NCBI GenBank assembly: GCA_900473915.1
Contig: UCNG01000002.1
Location: 67,078 to 131,077, forward strand
DNA: 64,000 nucleotides
DNA from: Hyphomicrobiales bacterium
Lineage (GTDB): Bacteria; Pseudomonadota; Alphaproteobacteria; Rhizobiales; Rhizobiaceae
Direction: 5' to 3'
The notes under the pieces are model-generated. The model had not been told where the DNA came from, searched no databases, and saw only the letters and a program-made list of their open reading frames with translations. Position 1 is the stretch's first letter; each line of letters starts with the position of its first letter. The translations under genes were made by a program, and so were the position numbers. Of this stretch, positions 35,155-43,512 are shown piece after piece.

Positions 35155-35187
35155 GGAACATGCCTAGCGCCCGCAATTGGGAGCTTC

Positions 35188-35203
35188 TTTGCGTTTTGGC
35201 AAA
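35188..35203. promoter_or_regulatory. NnrR/FNR-type palindrome between norE and 51-residue ORF
   Basis: TTTGCGTTTTGGCAAA differs at one base from the box before norC. It lies 34 bases upstream of norE on one side and 54 bases before the small ORF on the other. By -41.5 geometry it fits the small ORF with a 21-base leader better than norE. Confidence 0.65.
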
Positions 35204-35257
35204 GAACAAGTGCAGTGATGGCGACATTGTATCGCCACCATAGCAAAGGGAATTTCA

Positions 35258-35413
35258 ATGACGGACGCACAGATCGGACTCATGGTCGCGACACCGGCGA
35301 TCATCGGCTTTTCACTGGTTCTCTATCGCATGGGGGCCTTGCAAGGCGCTGGCACCCTGTCCGCCGTTGCGGCTTCCATCGTGATTGCCGCTGTCCTTTT
35401 CCTCGGTCAGTAG
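35258..35413 (+). CDS. Predicted 51-residue membrane protein divergent from norE
   Basis: Reading ATG 35258 to TAG 35411-35413 gives 51 residues starting MTDAQIGLMVATPAIIGFSL, with two hydrophobic segments separated by YRMGALQGAG, ending VIAAVLFLGQ. A purine-rich AAAGGGA lies eight bases upstream. It is unusually hydrophobic with no basic tail, and is transcribed divergently from norE under a shared NnrR-like palindrome. I do not recognise a family. It may be a small accessory subunit or membrane peptide of nitric oxide metabolism; this is inference from position. Confidence 0.65.
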   Translation: MTDAQIGLMVATPAIIGFSLVLYRMGALQGAGTLSAVAASIVIAAVLFLGQ

Positions 35414-35421
35414 GCGAGGGA

Positions 35422-35449
35422 GACGGGCGCCACGAATGCGCTGCCCGTC
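35422..35449. terminator. Hairpin between the 51-residue ORF and nnrR
   Basis: GACGGGC (35422-35428) pairs perfectly with GCCCGTC (35443-35449), 14-base loop, between convergent genes. No long T run follows, so only a possible terminator. Confidence 0.4.
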
Positions 35450-35556
35450 ATCCCGAATCTCTTTGAAAAGAACTATCTTTAAATATTTGCTTTAGTTGGA
35501 TTTCAGTTCGTTGTGGGCGGCTGTTTTCGCCTGAATTTTCGTGTTTGACCGCCGCT

Positions 35557-37402: not shown

Positions 37403-38533
37403 TTATGTGCCCGACGGCGCGAGAACCGAGGTCATCAGGTCGTCGTTCCATTCGCCGGTGACTTTGAAATGGGCTGCCGCGCCAAGTTCAAAAGCCTCGA
37501 TCAGATTGTGATTCACATAGGCATAGATGCCCGGCTGCTGGAACGTATAGAAAGCTGCTCCGGCTGCGCCGCCCGGGATGAACCAGGTTTCCTGATCGAC
37601 GTCCGGCGGCGTGTTGAACTTGCCGGTCGACCAGACATAATCCCCGTGACCTCCGATCAGGTGCGGCCTGGTATCGCGATTGGCCTGCGAATGGACGATC
37701 AGGACCTTCTCGCCAACTGCCGCCGTCATCGCCTTGTCGCCGGTGAGGGCGCCGACAGCACCGTTGAACACGACATGGGTCGGGGTGAGGGTGCGCATGA
37801 CCTTGACGGTGTCTTCATATGCGTCGCCCGGCGCATCGTACTTCTTGAATTTCCCGTTCTCGTCACGCGGCACATAGAAATCCTGCTCGCCGACATAATA
37901 GATTTTGTCATAGGTCAGGGCTTTGCCCTTGCCGTCATGCAGTCCCTCGCGCGGCAGCACCATGATCGCGCCGTTCATGCCCGAGACGACATGCCAGGGA
38001 ACCATTCCGGGAGGTGCGCAGTGGTAGACGAAGACGCCGGGCTTGGTCGCCTTGAAGCGCAGGATGGTCTTTTCACCCGGATTGATTTCGGTCAGCCCGC
38101 CGCCGCCAAGCGCACCCGTTGCCGCGTGGAAATCGATATTGTGCATCAGCGTGTTGGTTTCGGGGTTGATGAGCGTCAGCTCGACATAATCGTCCTGATG
38201 CACGACCATCAGCGGTCCCGGAACCGTGCCGTTGAACGCCATGGCGTGAACTTCGGTTCCCGCGTCATCGATGACGATCTTCTTTTCCTCGATCACCATG
38301 GTGAATTCGATCACCTTGGGGCCGCCCTCGGCAACCTGACTGTGGGCGTGCACGAAGGGAGGGTCCACCAACTCCACCTTCTGGCGCGGCAGGGCCGCTA
38401 TCTCCGCAGCACTTGCCTTCCGCACCGCGCCCTGTCCCCAGGCCGATGTGGTTGCCAGCACCGGCGCGAGCGCCCCAGCCAGGGCGGCTCCCGCCAATAT
38501 GCTGCGGCGGCTGATTTGCATCTGGTCGACCAT
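37403..38533 (-). CDS. nirK: Copper-containing nitrite reductase NirK
   Basis: A 376-residue periplasmic enzyme reducing nitrite to NO. The N-terminus has a twin-arginine signal ([19 protein letters not shown]). Copper ligands are visible: NIDFHAATG (type 2 and type 1 His region), [19 protein letters not shown] (type 1 Cys and His with type 2 His) and GAVGALTGD...[11 protein letters not shown] for the third site. Two cupredoxin domains, typical length. Upstream is a well-formed FNR-type promoter. Confidence 0.97.
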
Positions 38534-38583: not shown

Positions 38584-38625
38584 ACTATAGAAAAGGTCGT
38601 GTGGATGGTCCTTGACTGCGATCAA
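38584..38625 (-). promoter_or_regulatory. FNR/NnrR-type promoter of nirK
   Basis: TTGACTGCGATCAA (38612-38625) closely fits the TTGAT-N4-ATCAA consensus. On the minus strand TATAGT (38589-38584) is centred 32 bases from the box centre, exactly the class II arrangement with the box at -41.5. This predicts a start near 38577 and a 44-base leader. Confidence 0.8.
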
Positions 38626-38811
38626 GGTGATGCAGAAAATCGGGTAATATTAATATTGCAATATCAATGGTTTAACTTGATTGATTGATTTATGTTTCGT
38701 CTTGTTTGCGCTGGCGCAAAGGCTTGACGGCAAAAGGTTCTGCCCAAACAGAAACCAGCGAACAGTCTGGCACCGTTCGCTGGTTGCGATGATAGTTCGC
38801 GTGGCTTTGGA

Positions 38812-39129
38812 TTATTCTCCAAATCGGGCCTGTACTTCAGGCGCTGCCATCTCCGGAATCCACTCCGGTTCATAGGTCAGTTCGACATTCACCGCGCGAA
38901 CGCCTTCGACGGATTCGACGCTGGCGCGCACGGCATCGGTCAGAAAACCGGCTGCGGGGCAACCGGGTGTCGTGGTCGTCATGCTGATATCGACAACGCC
39001 GCCGTTCTGTATGTCGATGCTGTAGATCATGCCAAGGTCGATCAGGTTGAACCCGAGTTCGGGATCGAGCACCAGACGGAGATTGTCGATGATTTGCTGT
39101 TCCATCGGGGCATCGGCTGCGGGATGCAT
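38812..39129 (-). CDS. MIP18/PaaD-family (DUF59) iron-sulfur assembly-like protein
   Basis: A 105-residue protein of the MIP18 family: IIDNLRLVLDPELGFNLIDLGMIYSI, then SMTTTTPGCPAAGFL with the conserved Cys, and VNVELTYEPEW. Members such as SufT and PaaD help mature iron-sulfur clusters. The start at 39129 has GAGGTAG upstream; the longer frame through to 39699 runs antisense to nothing but overlaps the DUF2249 gene in another frame and is rejected for its N-terminal part. Last gene of the DUF2249 operon. Role in repairing NO-damaged clusters is inference. Confidence 0.85.
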   Translation of the reverse strand: MHPAADAPMEQQIIDNLRLVLDPELGFNLIDLGMIYSIDIQNGGVVDISMTTTTPGCPAAGFLTDAVRASVESVEGVRAVNVELTYEPEWIPEMAAPEVQARFGE

Positions 39130-39134
39130 GGCAA

Positions 39135-39668
39135 CTACCTCGGCTGCCCGATGCGTATCATGATGCGATAGGCATTGCCGGTCTCGTCGAAATTGCCGAC
39201 CCATGCATGGCCGCGATTTTCCAGCTCGGGGAACAGGAACAAAGGCTCCCGGTGCAGGAGGGCGAACAGAACCGCACCAGCGGGCATGTCCTCCACTTCG
39301 GCAAGAATGCGCACCATGGGTTCCGGCGGCTGCATGTCGGAACAGTCTAGATAGCGCGACGGTTCGGGCCAGACATCCGGCGAAACGACATTCTCCGAAA
39401 ACTGCAATTCCGGCGCGGTATCCGCCGCCGGGCTGAAAAGCACCTGCCAGTCGCCGTTTTCCAGAGGCTCGGCCTTTGCGGAAAAGCCTTTGCGTTCCAT
39501 GACGCTGAAAAGCGGTGCCGGTTTGAACGGCGCGATCAGCAGGAGGCTTTGCCCCGGCGCAAGGCCGTCGACTGCTTCCATGATGGCATTGAACGGTTCC
39601 ACGCCGCCCTTGATCAGCGGGCGCACATCCAGCACATGGTGTGCGATGTCCTGAACTGAGGGTGTCAT
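39135..39668 (-). CDS. Tandem DUF2249-domain protein
   Basis: A 177-residue soluble protein with two DUF2249-like units. The first starts HHVLDVRPLIKGGVEPFNAIMEAVDGL with the LDVRPL motif and GQSLLLIAPFKPAPLFSVMERKGF; the second starts RYLDCSDMQPPEPMVRILAEVEDM with GAVLFALLHREPLFLFPELENRGH. The fold resembles TusA/SirA-like proteins. DUF2249 genes often accompany denitrification and haemerythrin genes, function unknown. Its start overlaps the stop of the upstream membrane protein by four bases and the MIP18 gene follows five bases later. Confidence 0.83.
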   Translation of the reverse strand: MTPSVQDIAHHVLDVRPLIKGGVEPFNAIMEAVDGLAPGQSLLLIAPFKPAPLFSVMERKGFSAKAEPLENGDWQVLFSPAADTAPELQFSENVVSPDVWPEPSRYLDCSDMQPPEPMVRILAEVEDMPAGAVLFALLHREPLFLFPELENRGHAWVGNFDETGNAYRIMIRIGQPR

Positions 39669-41032
39669 TTCGATCTCCTGAAAATTGGTTCACCGGCATA
39701 GATCAGATGCGGCAGGGTTGCCCCTTTTGGCAGACGCAGGCCGTTGGGTACATCAAGAAGCCGCCGGGCGCGAAAGAAGTGCATGGTCAATCCGAGTATA
39801 GCGACGAGATTCAAACCTGCGGCCAGACGAAACACGGTCGGATAACCGGCGATGAGGGCCAGCGTCCCGACTGCGACGCCGCTATAATAAAGAGCGAACC
39901 ATTGCCGCGCGCGGCGTTCGCTGACCATATCCTGCACGCGCGGCGTCGGCGCGCGTCCCATGACGGGGCCATAGCATTCCAGCCAGGTCAGGAACGGTAC
40001 GATCTTGTAGAGTTGGGCGAGGCTCAGGCCGCTCAGCCAGCCGAAGGTGAAGAGATAGACGAGACCGGCAATCATCTGATCGGAGGTGCCTGTCCAGAAC
40101 AGGGCAATCGCCAGCAGCAGCGACAGCCCAAGCGCGATGAAGGCCGGAATACTGGCGGCGCTGTTCAATTCAATCGTCTTGCGCTTGCGTTGCCGGTAGA
40201 TCGCCTGAATATCGATCATATAAAGAGCGACGCAGGCGATGCCGGGAACGAGAGCCGCTGTGACGGCAACCTCGGTCGATCCCATTTCCATCGCTGCAAT
40301 GACGATCCCGGCTGCGAGGATGGTGAGGGCGGCAGCGCCTTCCCACCATATGATTCTGGTTGTCTGCCGCACGGCGTCGGGCGAAAGCATGAACATGGTC
40401 AGAAGCCTGTAGCTGACGCCCATGGCGGTAAACGTCATCCAGCCGCCAAGGCCAAGCGCAGCGTGAACCGGCAAGGCTGATCCGGCAATATCGAGCAGGA
40501 CGGCCTGGTCCGCGAATCCGGAAAGCGTGAATGTGAAAACGCTGCCGAGCAGGGCGGTTATCACAAGGCAGCATATGCCGGCCGCGACGAACCGTGCGGG
40601 CAGGGCGATCGGGCGGGCAAGCCAGAGCGTCATGCCCAATATTACGAAAATGATGGAGAAACCGCAGGTCAGCAGGATGCCGGAGACCGGCAGCAGCCAT
40701 GCCGGACTTTCCGCCAGCCCCGCCATGCCCGCAAAGCCGGTGAGCAGGCCGCAAAGGCCCGCCACCAGCAGAAGCAAGGCGGGGAGGCTCGCACGGCTTC
40801 CCCATAAGCGCCCGTTCACCAGAACCGGCACGAATTGCATGAGTGCGCCGCTCATCAGCAGGGCCAGCCATCCGATGGAAATGGCATGCACGACAATGAG
40901 CGTCTCGGCGGCGCGAATCCCATGAACCGGAAAGCCGAAACCACCTGTCATCAATCCAAGCCCAAAGACGAGGAAAGCCAGCGAAGCGGTAAAATAGGAC
41001 AGGGTCCAACGGGAAAGCGTCGCGCCGATCAT
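39665..41032 (-). CDS. Polytopic membrane protein of NO cluster (NnrS / haem-copper oxidase subunit I-like)
   Basis: A 455-residue protein with about 12 membrane helices. VVHAISIGWLALLMSGALMQ and LPVHAALGLGGWMTFTAMGV both place a His at the head of a helix with Gly and Met/Gln spacing like haem-ligand helices of NorB, cytochrome oxidase and NnrS. A cytoplasmic loop between helices has a basic RQRKRK segment. The protein may bind haem. It is flanked by DUF2249 genes on both sides in a tight operon. No enzyme activity can be assigned; NnrS-like protection from NO is one option. Confidence 0.7.
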   Translation of the reverse strand: MIGATLSRWTLSYFTASLAFLVFGLGLMTGGFGFPVHGIRAAETLIVVHAISIGWLALLMSGALMQFVPVLVNGRLWGSRASLPALLLLVAGLCGLLTGFAGMAGLAESPAWLLPVSGILLTCGFSIIFVILGMTLWLARPIALPARFVAAGICCLVITALLGSVFTFTLSGFADQAVLLDIAGSALPVHAALGLGGWMTFTAMGVSYRLLTMFMLSPDAVRQTTRIIWWEGAAALTILAAGIVIAAMEMGSTEVAVTAALVPGIACVALYMIDIQAIYRQRKRKTIELNSAASIPAFIALGLSLLLAIALFWTGTSDQMIAGLVYLFTFGWLSGLSLAQLYKIVPFLTWLECYGPVMGRAPTPRVQDMVSERRARQWFALYYSGVAVGTLALIAGYPTVFRLAAGLNLVAILGLTMHFFRARRLLDVPNGLRLPKGATLPHLIYAGEPIFRRSK

Positions 41033-41066
41033 CTCAATTCGTCCGGGTCAGGGTGCCTATGAGACT

Positions 41067-41354
41067 TCAGTGATTGCCGCAGGTGCATTCATGGCCCGCG
41101 CCATGATGGACTTTTCGGCGGCCGATCTCGACCCGCCACAGCGGGCCTGTTTCCTTGTAGACCCAGGAGAAAGTGGCCGGATTGCGGGTTTCAAGCTGGT
41201 GGCGCAGCGGCACCGGATCGTGATCGTTGACGATTTCCAGCGCTTCACCAGGTTCAAGCGCATCGATCATGGAGAAGATCGTCGCGTGCCGCGAAATGGG
41301 CGGTATGGTGCGAACATCAATTACCGGGGTTGGGGAGACAGGTTCTGCCGACAT
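41067..41354 (-). CDS. DUF2249-domain protein with C-terminal Cys/His tail
   Basis: A 95-residue protein, first gene of the operon. PVIDVRTIPPISRHATIFSMIDAL and PGEALEIVNDHDPVPLRHQLETRNP are the DUF2249 pattern, with WRVEIGRR closing the domain. The tail KVHHGAGHECTCGNH has two Cys and several His that could bind a metal. A candidate FNR-type promoter lies 93-106 bases upstream. Function unknown; TusA-like sulfur or metal handling is inferred. Confidence 0.83.
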   Translation of the reverse strand: MSAEPVSPTPVIDVRTIPPISRHATIFSMIDALEPGEALEIVNDHDPVPLRHQLETRNPATFSWVYKETGPLWRVEIGRRKVHHGAGHECTCGNH

Positions 41355-41418
41355 TTTATTGTTCCGTGGCTGTCAGGCTTCGAAGCATGATGACGACAGC
41401 CGCATCATCATTGGAGCC

Positions 41419-41460
41419 ATTCTAGAGTGACAGGCGCAAACCGGATTTGTTGTATCTCAA
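41419..41460 (-). promoter_or_regulatory. Candidate FNR-type promoter of the DUF2249 operon
   Basis: TTGTTGTATCTCAA (41447-41460) keeps TTG-N8-CAA. On the minus strand TAGAAT (41424-41419) is centred 32 bases away, the same spacing as at nirK. The box itself is weak, but box plus -10 in register supports it. Predicted start near 41412, leader about 58 bases. Confidence 0.5.
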
Positions 41461-42959: not shown

Positions 42960-43036
42960 GCGGGTGTAGCTCAGTTGGTTAGAGTGCCGGCCTGTCACGC
43001 CGGAGGTCGCGGGTTCGAGCCCCGTCACTCGCGCCA
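42960..43036 (+). tRNA. tRNA-Asp(GTC), copy 1
   Basis: 77 bases with encoded CCA. The acceptor stem GCGGGTG pairs with CACTCGC (one G-T pair), the anticodon loop CTGTCAC holds GTC between CCGGC and GCCGG, and GCGGG TTCGAGC CCCGT is the T arm. Identical to the second copy. Confidence 0.97.
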
Positions 43037-43288: not shown

Positions 43289-43512
43289 GCTTGACACTTG
43301 TTCGAGAACCCCTTAAACGACCGCTCACACCGGACGGAAACGCCGGTGCGACGCAGCCTCAGGGTTGCCGAGAAATGCGCGGGTGTAGCTCAGTTGGTTA
43401 GAGTGCCGGCCTGTCACGCCGGAGGTCGCGGGTTCGAGCCCCGTCACTCGCGCCACTTTCCTCTCAACATATCGATAGATTGAAGTTGATGCGAAAGTGG
43501 CGCCCACCGCCT
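43289..43512 (+). repeat. Direct repeat carrying tRNA-Asp, copy 2
   Basis: Second copy of the 224-base unit described at 42870. Differences seen include CTCAGGGTT for CGCAGGGCT before the tRNA and TGATGCG for TGACACG after it. Confidence 0.85.
43379..43455 (+). tRNA. tRNA-Asp(GTC), copy 2
   Basis: Same 77-base sequence as the first copy, CCA encoded, with its own TTGACA promoter element at 43291-43296. Confidence 0.97.

What the first reader, a model, noticed from the sequence alone, without database searches (positions are those of the whole stretch)
38812..41460. Uncharacterised operon DUF2249 - polytopic membrane protein - DUF2249x2 - MIP18 under an FNR-type promoter
Four tightly packed genes (34-base gap, 4-base overlap, 5-base gap) lie behind nirK on the same strand. 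Upstream, TTG-N8-CAA with a TAGAAT hexamer centred 32 bases away copies the geometry of the nirK promoter. DUF2249 is TusA-like, the MIP18 protein keeps the conserved Cys used in iron-sulfur assembly, and the membrane protein has His-headed helices like haem-copper enzymes. I infer a system that protects or rebuilds metal centres when NO is made.
Basis: partly seen in the sequence, partly recalled or inferred. Interest (0 to 1): 0.7.

Follow-up and report, generated by a model that had tools for sequence, protein, structure and literature searches.

The report
Denitrification operon resembling Thermus drp genes
Beside a nitrite reductase gene lies a four-gene operon whose parts match a gene set found in the heat-loving bacterium Thermus, where two of them are needed for nitrate breathing, and its membrane protein has the fold of respiratory oxidases without their active site, so a poorly understood helper system of denitrification becomes testable.

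Summary
The four genes, their spacing and the promoter are real. In relatives, 58 of 80 loci have the TTG-N8-CAA box, and 50 of those 58 have TAnnnT 21 or 22 nt after it. A hairpin with a 14-bp stem separates the unit from nirK.

The membrane protein is in no Pfam or NCBIfam family. Its model (pLDDT 91) has the haem-copper oxidase fold. Only two His are invariant in 17 proteins of four phyla, so the catalytic centre cannot form. The TusA-like protein lacks the sulfur-carrying Cys.

New here: homologues of all four genes lie together in Thermus drp loci, including strain NAR1. There DrpA and DrpB were proposed as nitrate sensors; the double mutant makes NarG with one tenth of the activity (PMC6282519). 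Distant relatives lie beside hemerythrin or near ric iron-repair genes.

Best explanation: a membrane-anchored system that matures or repairs metal centres during N-oxide respiration (0.45).

The parts
41447..41460 (-). FNR/NnrR-type box TTGAGATACAACAA
   Evidence: conserved in relatives with its spacing to the -10
41419..41424 (-). -10 hexamer TAGAAT, 22 nt after the box
   Evidence: TAnnnT at 21 or 22 nt in 50 of 58 loci with a box
41067..41354 (-). gene A: DUF2249 protein, 95 aa, DrpA homologue, with a C-terminal ECTCGNH tail
   Evidence: PF10006 1.9e-25; profile match to Thermus DrpA 2.1e-34; CxC tail in 34 of 42 adjacent A proteins
39665..41032 (-). gene B: 12-TM protein of haem-copper oxidase fold, 455 aa, two invariant His (H49, H190)
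39135..39668 (-). gene C: two TusA-like/DUF2249 domains without the CPxP sulfur-carrier Cys, 177 aa, DrpB homologue without its DUF1858
38812..39129 (-). gene D: MIP18-type Fe-S assembly factor, 105 aa, TTTTPGCP
   Evidence: PF01883 2.1e-20; solved relatives TM0487 and TTHB138
38753..38785 (-). terminator-like hairpin (14-bp stem, T-rich tail) between the operon and nirK
37403..38533 (-). nirK, neighbouring unit with the same promoter geometry (box 38612-38625)
   Evidence: TIGR02376 547.7 bits

Best explanation
The operon is the alphaproteobacterial form of a widespread gene set (A, B, C, D) whose Thermus form is the drp locus. I think it encodes a membrane-anchored system that matures or repairs metal centres of enzymes used, or damaged, during respiration of nitrogen oxides. 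Proposed steps: (1) activation by an FNR/NnrR-type regulator from a class-II promoter when oxygen is low and NO is made (geometry shown; binding and signal inferred). (2) B sits in the membrane with the oxidase fold but without the catalytic ligands; it may hold one haem or metal through His49 and His190 and serve as a NO-, redox- or haem-responsive anchor (fold and residues shown; cofactor inferred). (3) C and A are adaptors of TusA-like kind that do not carry sulfur on a CPxP Cys and bind B, D or a client (fold of C and missing Cys shown; binding inferred). (4) D, a MIP18 factor, delivers iron or an Fe-S unit to the client (family shown; transfer inferred).
For: C follows B in 80 of 80 loci and D follows in 71 of 80; nir, nor or nos genes lie in the stretch in 59 of 80 (these are the best matches, not a random sample). 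Even sample of the order: B in 15 of 297 genomes, C in all 15, NirK above cut-off in 12 of the 15, within 8 kb of B on one contig in 8 of the 12. Homologues of all four genes in one Thermus locus: DrpA 2.1e-34, DrpB 2.3e-33, B 9.6e-30, MIP18 3.3e-27 (six-protein set), and the same genes in NAR1. NAR1 drpAB mutant: NarG made, activity 90 against 900 U (PMC6282519 section 9); its authors say DrpA/B act on levels required for maturation of the activity (section 13). The changing partners all concern iron: MIP18 in Pseudomonadota, Thermus and Aliarcobacter; hemerythrin beside distant relatives; ric, or its split parts, near two haloarchaeal B genes.
Against: No metal, haem, client or NO effect is shown for any member. 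The published data were read as nitrate sensing: DrpA was found in the periplasm, drpB loss changes transcription, and the authors allow that the activity defect is an indirect effect of sensing. An Agrobacterium plasmid has A and C without B and D between norD and nnrS; Paracoccus aminovorans has C alone after nos; so the set is not indivisible. 3 of 15 carriers have no NirK match and no NorB match better than E 1e-4. 56 of 68 NirK genomes lack B, so it is accessory. 21 of 80 loci have no nir, nor or nos gene in the stretch, partly because of contig ends.
Confidence: 0.45

Rival explanations
1. A sensing and regulatory device: A and C detect a nitrogen oxide and, with membrane-bound B, adjust the activity of a Crp/Fnr-type regulator, as proposed for DrpA/DrpB.
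For: PMC6282519 sections 9 and 13: loss of drpAB makes nar expression independent of nitrate, loss of drpB makes it constitutive. A and C are DrpA/DrpB homologues. A Crp/Fnr gene is in the stretch in 62 of 80 loci.
Against: MIP18 has no role in that model; the low activity per NarG in the double mutant is not explained by transcription alone. The window and most loci already have an nnrR-like gene.
Confidence: 0.25
2. An NnrS-like NO-protection protein: B binds NO or guards iron or haem from NO; A, C and D help, with no maturation role.
For: Oxidase-like fold with two conserved His; NnrS genes in 40 of 80 loci; ric/hemerythrin neighbours.
Against: No detectable profile similarity to NnrS (hhalign probability 1.4%); NnrS often sits in the same locus, so the job would be doubled; MIP18 follows in 71 of 80.
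Confidence: 0.15
3. A dedicated assembly factor for NO reductase or for NirK.
For: NirK and NorB are common neighbours (43 and 33 of 80); COG4309 was suggested to matter for NO reductase (PMC1274295, passages).
Against: Of 15 carrier genomes, 4 have NirK but only weak NorB matches (E 4e-5 or worse) or none, and 3 have neither; L034, L037 and L075 lie by nosRZ only; in Thermus NAR1 the set follows nar.
Confidence: 0.08
4. A sulfur relay (TusA-like persulfide carrier feeding Fe-S assembly).
For: TusA fold of C: best PDB matches 1dcj and 3lvj, Pfam TusA 1.5e-9.
Against: The CPxP Cys is Pro in 11 of 11 aligned C proteins and in 79 of 80 by motif; 46 of 80 C proteins have no Cys from the profile start to the stop. 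The window's C has one Cys, elsewhere.
Confidence: 0.03

Closest known systems
Thermus thermophilus drp locus (DrpA, DrpB; PMC6282519)
   Same: Homologues of all four genes lie together, also in NAR1 where DrpA/B were studied; anaerobic nitrate context
   Different: Order A-C-(4-TM protein)-(protoglobin)-B-D; DrpB has an extra DUF1858; Thermus has no FNR homologue (PMC6282519); described in print as bigenic drpAB (PMC7694296 passages)
Three-unit HCO-homology (HCOH) proteins, incl. NnrS (Pei et al. 2014, doi 10.1002/pro.2503; abstract recalled, paper not held)
   Same: 12 helices, oxidase fold, two conserved His, denitrification context
   Different: No sequence or profile match to NnrS; whether this very family is in that paper could not be checked
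Haem-copper oxidase and NO reductase catalytic subunits
   Same: Fold: 3mk7 TM 0.65, 4xyd 0.60
   Different: Of the metal and haem His only those of TM2 and TM6 remain
RIC/ScdA/YtfE iron-centre repair (hemerythrin with DUF542)
   Same: B relatives and DUF2249 occur beside or near such genes
   Different: The window has no hemerythrin hit; MIP18 is the partner here
MIP18/SufT/PaaD Fe-S assembly factors
   Same: PF01883, TTTTPGCP Cys, solved relatives TM0487 and TTHB138
   Different: Below the NCBIfam cut-off for SUF_assoc (97.2 against 143.4 bits); not in a suf operon

Membership tests
Thermus drp-type gene set | A homologous to DrpA, C homologous to DrpB | tested here: met
   profiles 2.1e-34 and 2.3e-33; tblastn
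Thermus drp-type gene set | DrpB carries an N-terminal DUF1858 | tested here: not met
   absent in window C; a separate DUF1858 gene occurs in some relatives but has no hit in the window
Thermus drp-type gene set | B and MIP18 homologues in the same locus | tested here: met
   L135, L137, L143; but L142 (HB5018) lists neither and L144 lists no MIP18
Thermus drp-type gene set | needed for nitrate respiration | not testable with these tools
   published for DrpA/B of T. thermophilus only
Haem-copper oxidase catalytic subunit | 12-helix oxidase fold | tested here: met
   the 26 matches at E<=0.001 are oxidase or NO reductase entries
Haem-copper oxidase catalytic subunit | six metal/haem His | tested here: not met
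   two invariant His in 17 proteins
Three-unit HCOH protein | 12 helices and two conserved His | tested here: met
   the definition is recalled from an abstract
NnrS | sequence or profile match | tested here: not met
   no Pfam hit; hhalign probability 1.4%
TusA sulfurtransferase | TusA fold | tested here: met
   TMt 0.73-0.80 to TusA, though E only 0.012-0.019
TusA sulfurtransferase | CPxP cysteine | tested here: not met
MIP18 Fe-S assembly factor | PF01883 domain with conserved Cys | tested here: met
NnrR/FNR class-II promoter | box-to-minus-10 spacing conserved in relatives | tested here: met
NnrR/FNR class-II promoter | regulator binds and activates | not testable with these tools
   needs transcription data

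The most novel reading that the evidence does not exclude
An unrecognised, widely conserved machine (Pseudomonadota, Deinococcota, Campylobacterota, in part haloarchaea) dedicated to building or repairing metal centres during nitrogen-oxide respiration. Its core is an oxidase-fold protein that has lost catalysis and holds one haem between helices 2 and 6, at the third pore of the pseudo-threefold fold, which catalytic oxidases leave empty; the haem gates delivery of iron or Fe-S from MIP18 through TusA-fold adaptors that carry no sulfur. The DrpA/DrpB 'nitrate sensors' would be parts of it.
Probability: 0.25. Interest if true: 0.85.

Novelty: new variant of a known kind. Interest (0 to 1): 0.6.

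Why it matters
DUF2249 proteins recur in denitrification islands of bacteria and archaea without a settled job. Tying them to a partner set (an oxidase-fold membrane protein without a catalytic centre, and an Fe-S factor), and finding that set in the very Thermus strain where two members have mutants, gives a concrete test of sensing against maturation. It also offers a case of an oxidase fold reused for something other than catalysis.

Tried and rejected
Sulfur relay: rejected for C. NnrS or NorB kinship by profile: no match, though my alignments are shallow. PDB relatives of B by sequence: none. Anti-phage library: no match for B. NO-reductase-only helper: rejected by carriers without a good NorB match. 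Own genome: not held, so co-occurrence is from relatives. NirS in place of NirK: of the 3 NirK-less carriers two have only short weak PF02239 matches (E about 1e-6) and one none; I did not take these as NirS. NosZ: above cut-off in 3 of 15 carriers, with one more in two pieces below it. Second structure aligner not available. Model coordinates are not given to me, so the His49-His190 distance was not measured. Papers with S. meliloti tags SMa1250-1266 (tags recalled): none. Papers with 'metal-sulfur cluster assembly', nirK and denitrif*: none. Rows dropped before counts: A5 keeps 56 of 79 usable B proteins (near-identical or short ones left out) and L061 was left out because the gene is in pieces; 6 of 62 C rows left out of A9 as redundant; the last 2 of 11 A3 rows left out of the A profile.
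Full report
1. Observation. The window's minus strand carries DUF2249 (A, 95 aa), a 455-aa membrane protein (B), a 177-aa protein with two DUF2249/TusA-like domains (C) and a 105-aa MIP18 protein (D), with gaps of 34, -4 and 5 bases. Downstream in transcription come nirK, an FGE-type gene usually called nirV (name recalled), a Crp/Fnr gene and nor genes. Pfam and NCBIfam have domains for A, C and D but none for B (NCBIfam matches D only, below cut-off). A hairpin with a 14-bp stem and T-rich tail lies between D and nirK.

2. Promoter. TTG-N8-CAA sites are about as frequent in the window as in shuffles (21 against 18.3). What is special is the geometry: of 42 site-orientations only this operon and nirK have a -10 with 5 of 6 matches at 21-23 nt. 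In 80 related loci, 58 have a box within 260 nt upstream of A or B, against 8.6 expected from each locus's own density (22 have none). TAnnnT follows at 22 nt in 40, at 21 nt in 10 and at neither in 8 of those 58; no other spacing from 12 to 34 has more than 1. The distance of 32 is that of class-II FNR/CRP promoters (general knowledge). The alphaproteobacterial NnrR consensus ctTTGcgnnnncgCAAag is from PMC1274295 (passages); many relatives show TTGCG, the window shows TTGAG, so NnrR or another FNR-type regulator remains open.

3. Membrane protein B. The model from 57 aligned sequences has pLDDT 91, pTM 0.91 and 12 long helices. The 26 PDB matches at E<=0.001 are haem-copper oxidase or NO reductase entries (best 3mk7, E 8.9e-7, TM 0.65; NorB 4xyd, E 2.7e-6). 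By sequence no PDB chain matches, and profile comparison with NnrS and NorB finds nothing. In 17 proteins from Pseudomonadota, Deinococcota, Campylobacterota and haloarchaea only His49 and His190 are invariant among His. By eye, against the window's NorB, His49 aligns with the TM2 haem-b ligand and His190 with the TM6 non-haem-metal ligand; the TM7 and TM10 ligands are absent (roles of the NorB residues recalled). Four of five haloarchaeal rows have a His where I place the TM10 haem-b ligand. In the threefold pseudo-symmetric fold TM2 and TM6 flank the pore that catalytic oxidases leave empty (recalled), hence the novel case; I could not measure distances.

4. C, A and D. Both halves of C are modelled as TusA-like domains (pLDDT 86, pTM 0.52; PDB matches 1dcj and 3lvj, TMt 0.73-0.80 but E only 0.012-0.019). 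The CPxP Cys is Pro in 11 of 11 aligned C proteins and in 79 of 80 by motif, and 46 of 80 hold no Cys from the profile start to the stop. A ends in ECTCGNH; a CxC tail is present in 34 of 42 adjacent A proteins and absent in 8. D keeps the MIP18 Cys; its best solved relatives include TM0487 and TTHB138.

5. Conservation of the set. In the 80 best B loci of the species collection (not a random sample; 13 cut by contig ends) C follows B in 80, D follows in 71 (76 somewhere in the stretch), A precedes in 42 (47 anywhere), all four in 39. NirK is in 43, NorB in 33, NosZ in 16, NnrS in 40, Crp/Fnr in 62; nir, nor or nos genes are in 59 and absent in 21. Examples without them lie by SCP2 and U32 genes (L065), by a cbb3 oxidase gene (L067) or by seemingly unrelated genes (L102). 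In an even sample of the order, B is in 15 of 297 genomes, NirK above cut-off in 68, both in 12 (Fisher p 2.3e-6, not corrected for kinship). C is found in all 15 and in 5 more (E 7.5e-63 to 4e-12). Of the 15, NorB with at least 85% identity is in 8 and NosZ above cut-off in 3; the other NorB matches are weak (E 4e-5 or worse) or none. In the window's genus 22 of 35 genomes carry B, one of them in fragments. In the phylum sample 38 of 299 match, 12 closely (E 1e-120 or better) and 26 more weakly.

6. The Thermus link. tblastn of C and A against plasmids hits Thermus. In SNM7-6 and TF28 the order is DrpA, DrpB, a 144-aa 4-TM protein with a weak COX1 match, a protoglobin, a 383-aa protein and a MIP18 protein. 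My profiles match the SNM7-6 proteins: A 2.1e-34, C 2.3e-33, B 9.6e-30, D 3.3e-27 (E-values for a six-protein set). NAR1, the strain of the published work, has the same genes with a transposase between DrpB and the rest, which may be why drpAB is called bigenic (PMC7694296 and PMC13019369, passages; my inference). B has matches in 18 Thermus plasmid records, 14 nearly full length and 4 only its end. HB5018 lists no B or D, and T. parvatiensis lists no D. HB8 keeps only the end of B next to a MIP18 gene that is TTHB138, with solved structure 2cu6. PMC6282519 (passages, and sections 9 and 13 in full) reports that loss of both Drp proteins leaves NarG but one tenth of the activity and makes expression independent of nitrate; it proposes nitrate sensing plus an effect on maturation. 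It does not use the terms MIP18 or DUF59.

7. Wider relatives. Aliarcobacter has a weak DUF2249 match (E 6e-5), B and MIP18 in a row. Of 11 fetched loci with weak B matches, the A profile hits beside B in 6 and the C profile in 2 (L128, L129); L118, L122 and L133 show neither. Pfam gives hemerythrin beside B in L118 and L119, and L128 has hemerythrin, DUF2249 and B in a row. Haloarchaeal B lies in one stretch with DUF2249 and nirK (L147), directly after a multicopper oxidase gene (L015), or near ric and DUF2249 (L148; L150 with split parts); L016 and L146 show no gene named nir in the stretch. PMC11218638 (passages) reports all four H. mediterranei DUF2249 genes induced under denitrification, one of them part of a P-loop iron-sulfur carrier.

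8. Reading. The constant themes are N-oxide respiration and iron handling. Maturation or repair fits MIP18, the hemerythrin/ric neighbours and the inactive NarG; sensing fits the transcription effects in Thermus. I hold maturation or repair at 0.45 and sensing at 0.25. Shown: anatomy, promoter geometry, fold, lost catalytic ligands, lost sulfur Cys, homology to drp. Inferred: haem or metal in B, contacts among the four, the client, the NO trigger.

9. Prior knowledge. COG4309 (which I take to be DUF2249, recalled) in NnrR-controlled nor operons was predicted in 2005 (PMC1274295, passages). HCO-homology proteins with two His and a denitrification context were described in 2014 (Pei et al., abstract recalled; cited for DUF2249 in PMC11218638). 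I found no text in the held library that joins Drp proteins with the B and MIP18 genes: searches, and passages of all 7 papers listed. The library lacks most subscription papers.

Noticed in passing
window 42960-43036 and 43379-43455: Two tRNA-Asp genes 419 bases apart with near-identical overlapping ORFs: probably a tandem duplication.
   Followed up: no
window 35155-35556: Close relatives L023, L024 and L036 have a hemerythrin-like gene between nnrR and norE; the window has a 51-aa ORF there and no hemerythrin hit anywhere.
   Followed up: partly
L137 7498-7932 and 7935-8774: The Thermus drp locus also holds a 4-TM oxidase-like protein with an HxH motif and a protoglobin with a sub-threshold ThiS match; neither has a hit in the fetched loci outside Thermus.
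   Followed up: partly
L149 5001-5704: Aerobic T. thermophilus HB8 keeps a truncated B end beside the MIP18 gene TTHB138, a likely remnant of a lost nitrate island.
   Followed up: partly
L141 1-6243: Maritalea plasmid: nirK with two DUF2249 genes, DUF1858, a NifU-family gene and a NUBPL-type iron-transfer NTPase, another nirK-to-Fe-S link.
   Followed up: no
L065 14450-15968 and L140 6612-9183: B-C-D, or C alone, near SCP2 and U32 genes, which look like oxygen-independent ubiquinone synthesis genes (function recalled).
   Followed up: no
L015, L016, L146, L147, L148, L150: Haloarchaeal B neighbourhoods hold CGCGG-family rSAM-modified RiPP genes (L016, L146, L148, L150), cupins (L016, L146, L147) or radical SAM genes (L015, L147).
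   Followed up: no
L061 10001-11361: B lies in three overlapping pieces in a Brucella cytisi assembly; sequencing error or decay, not resolved.
   Followed up: no
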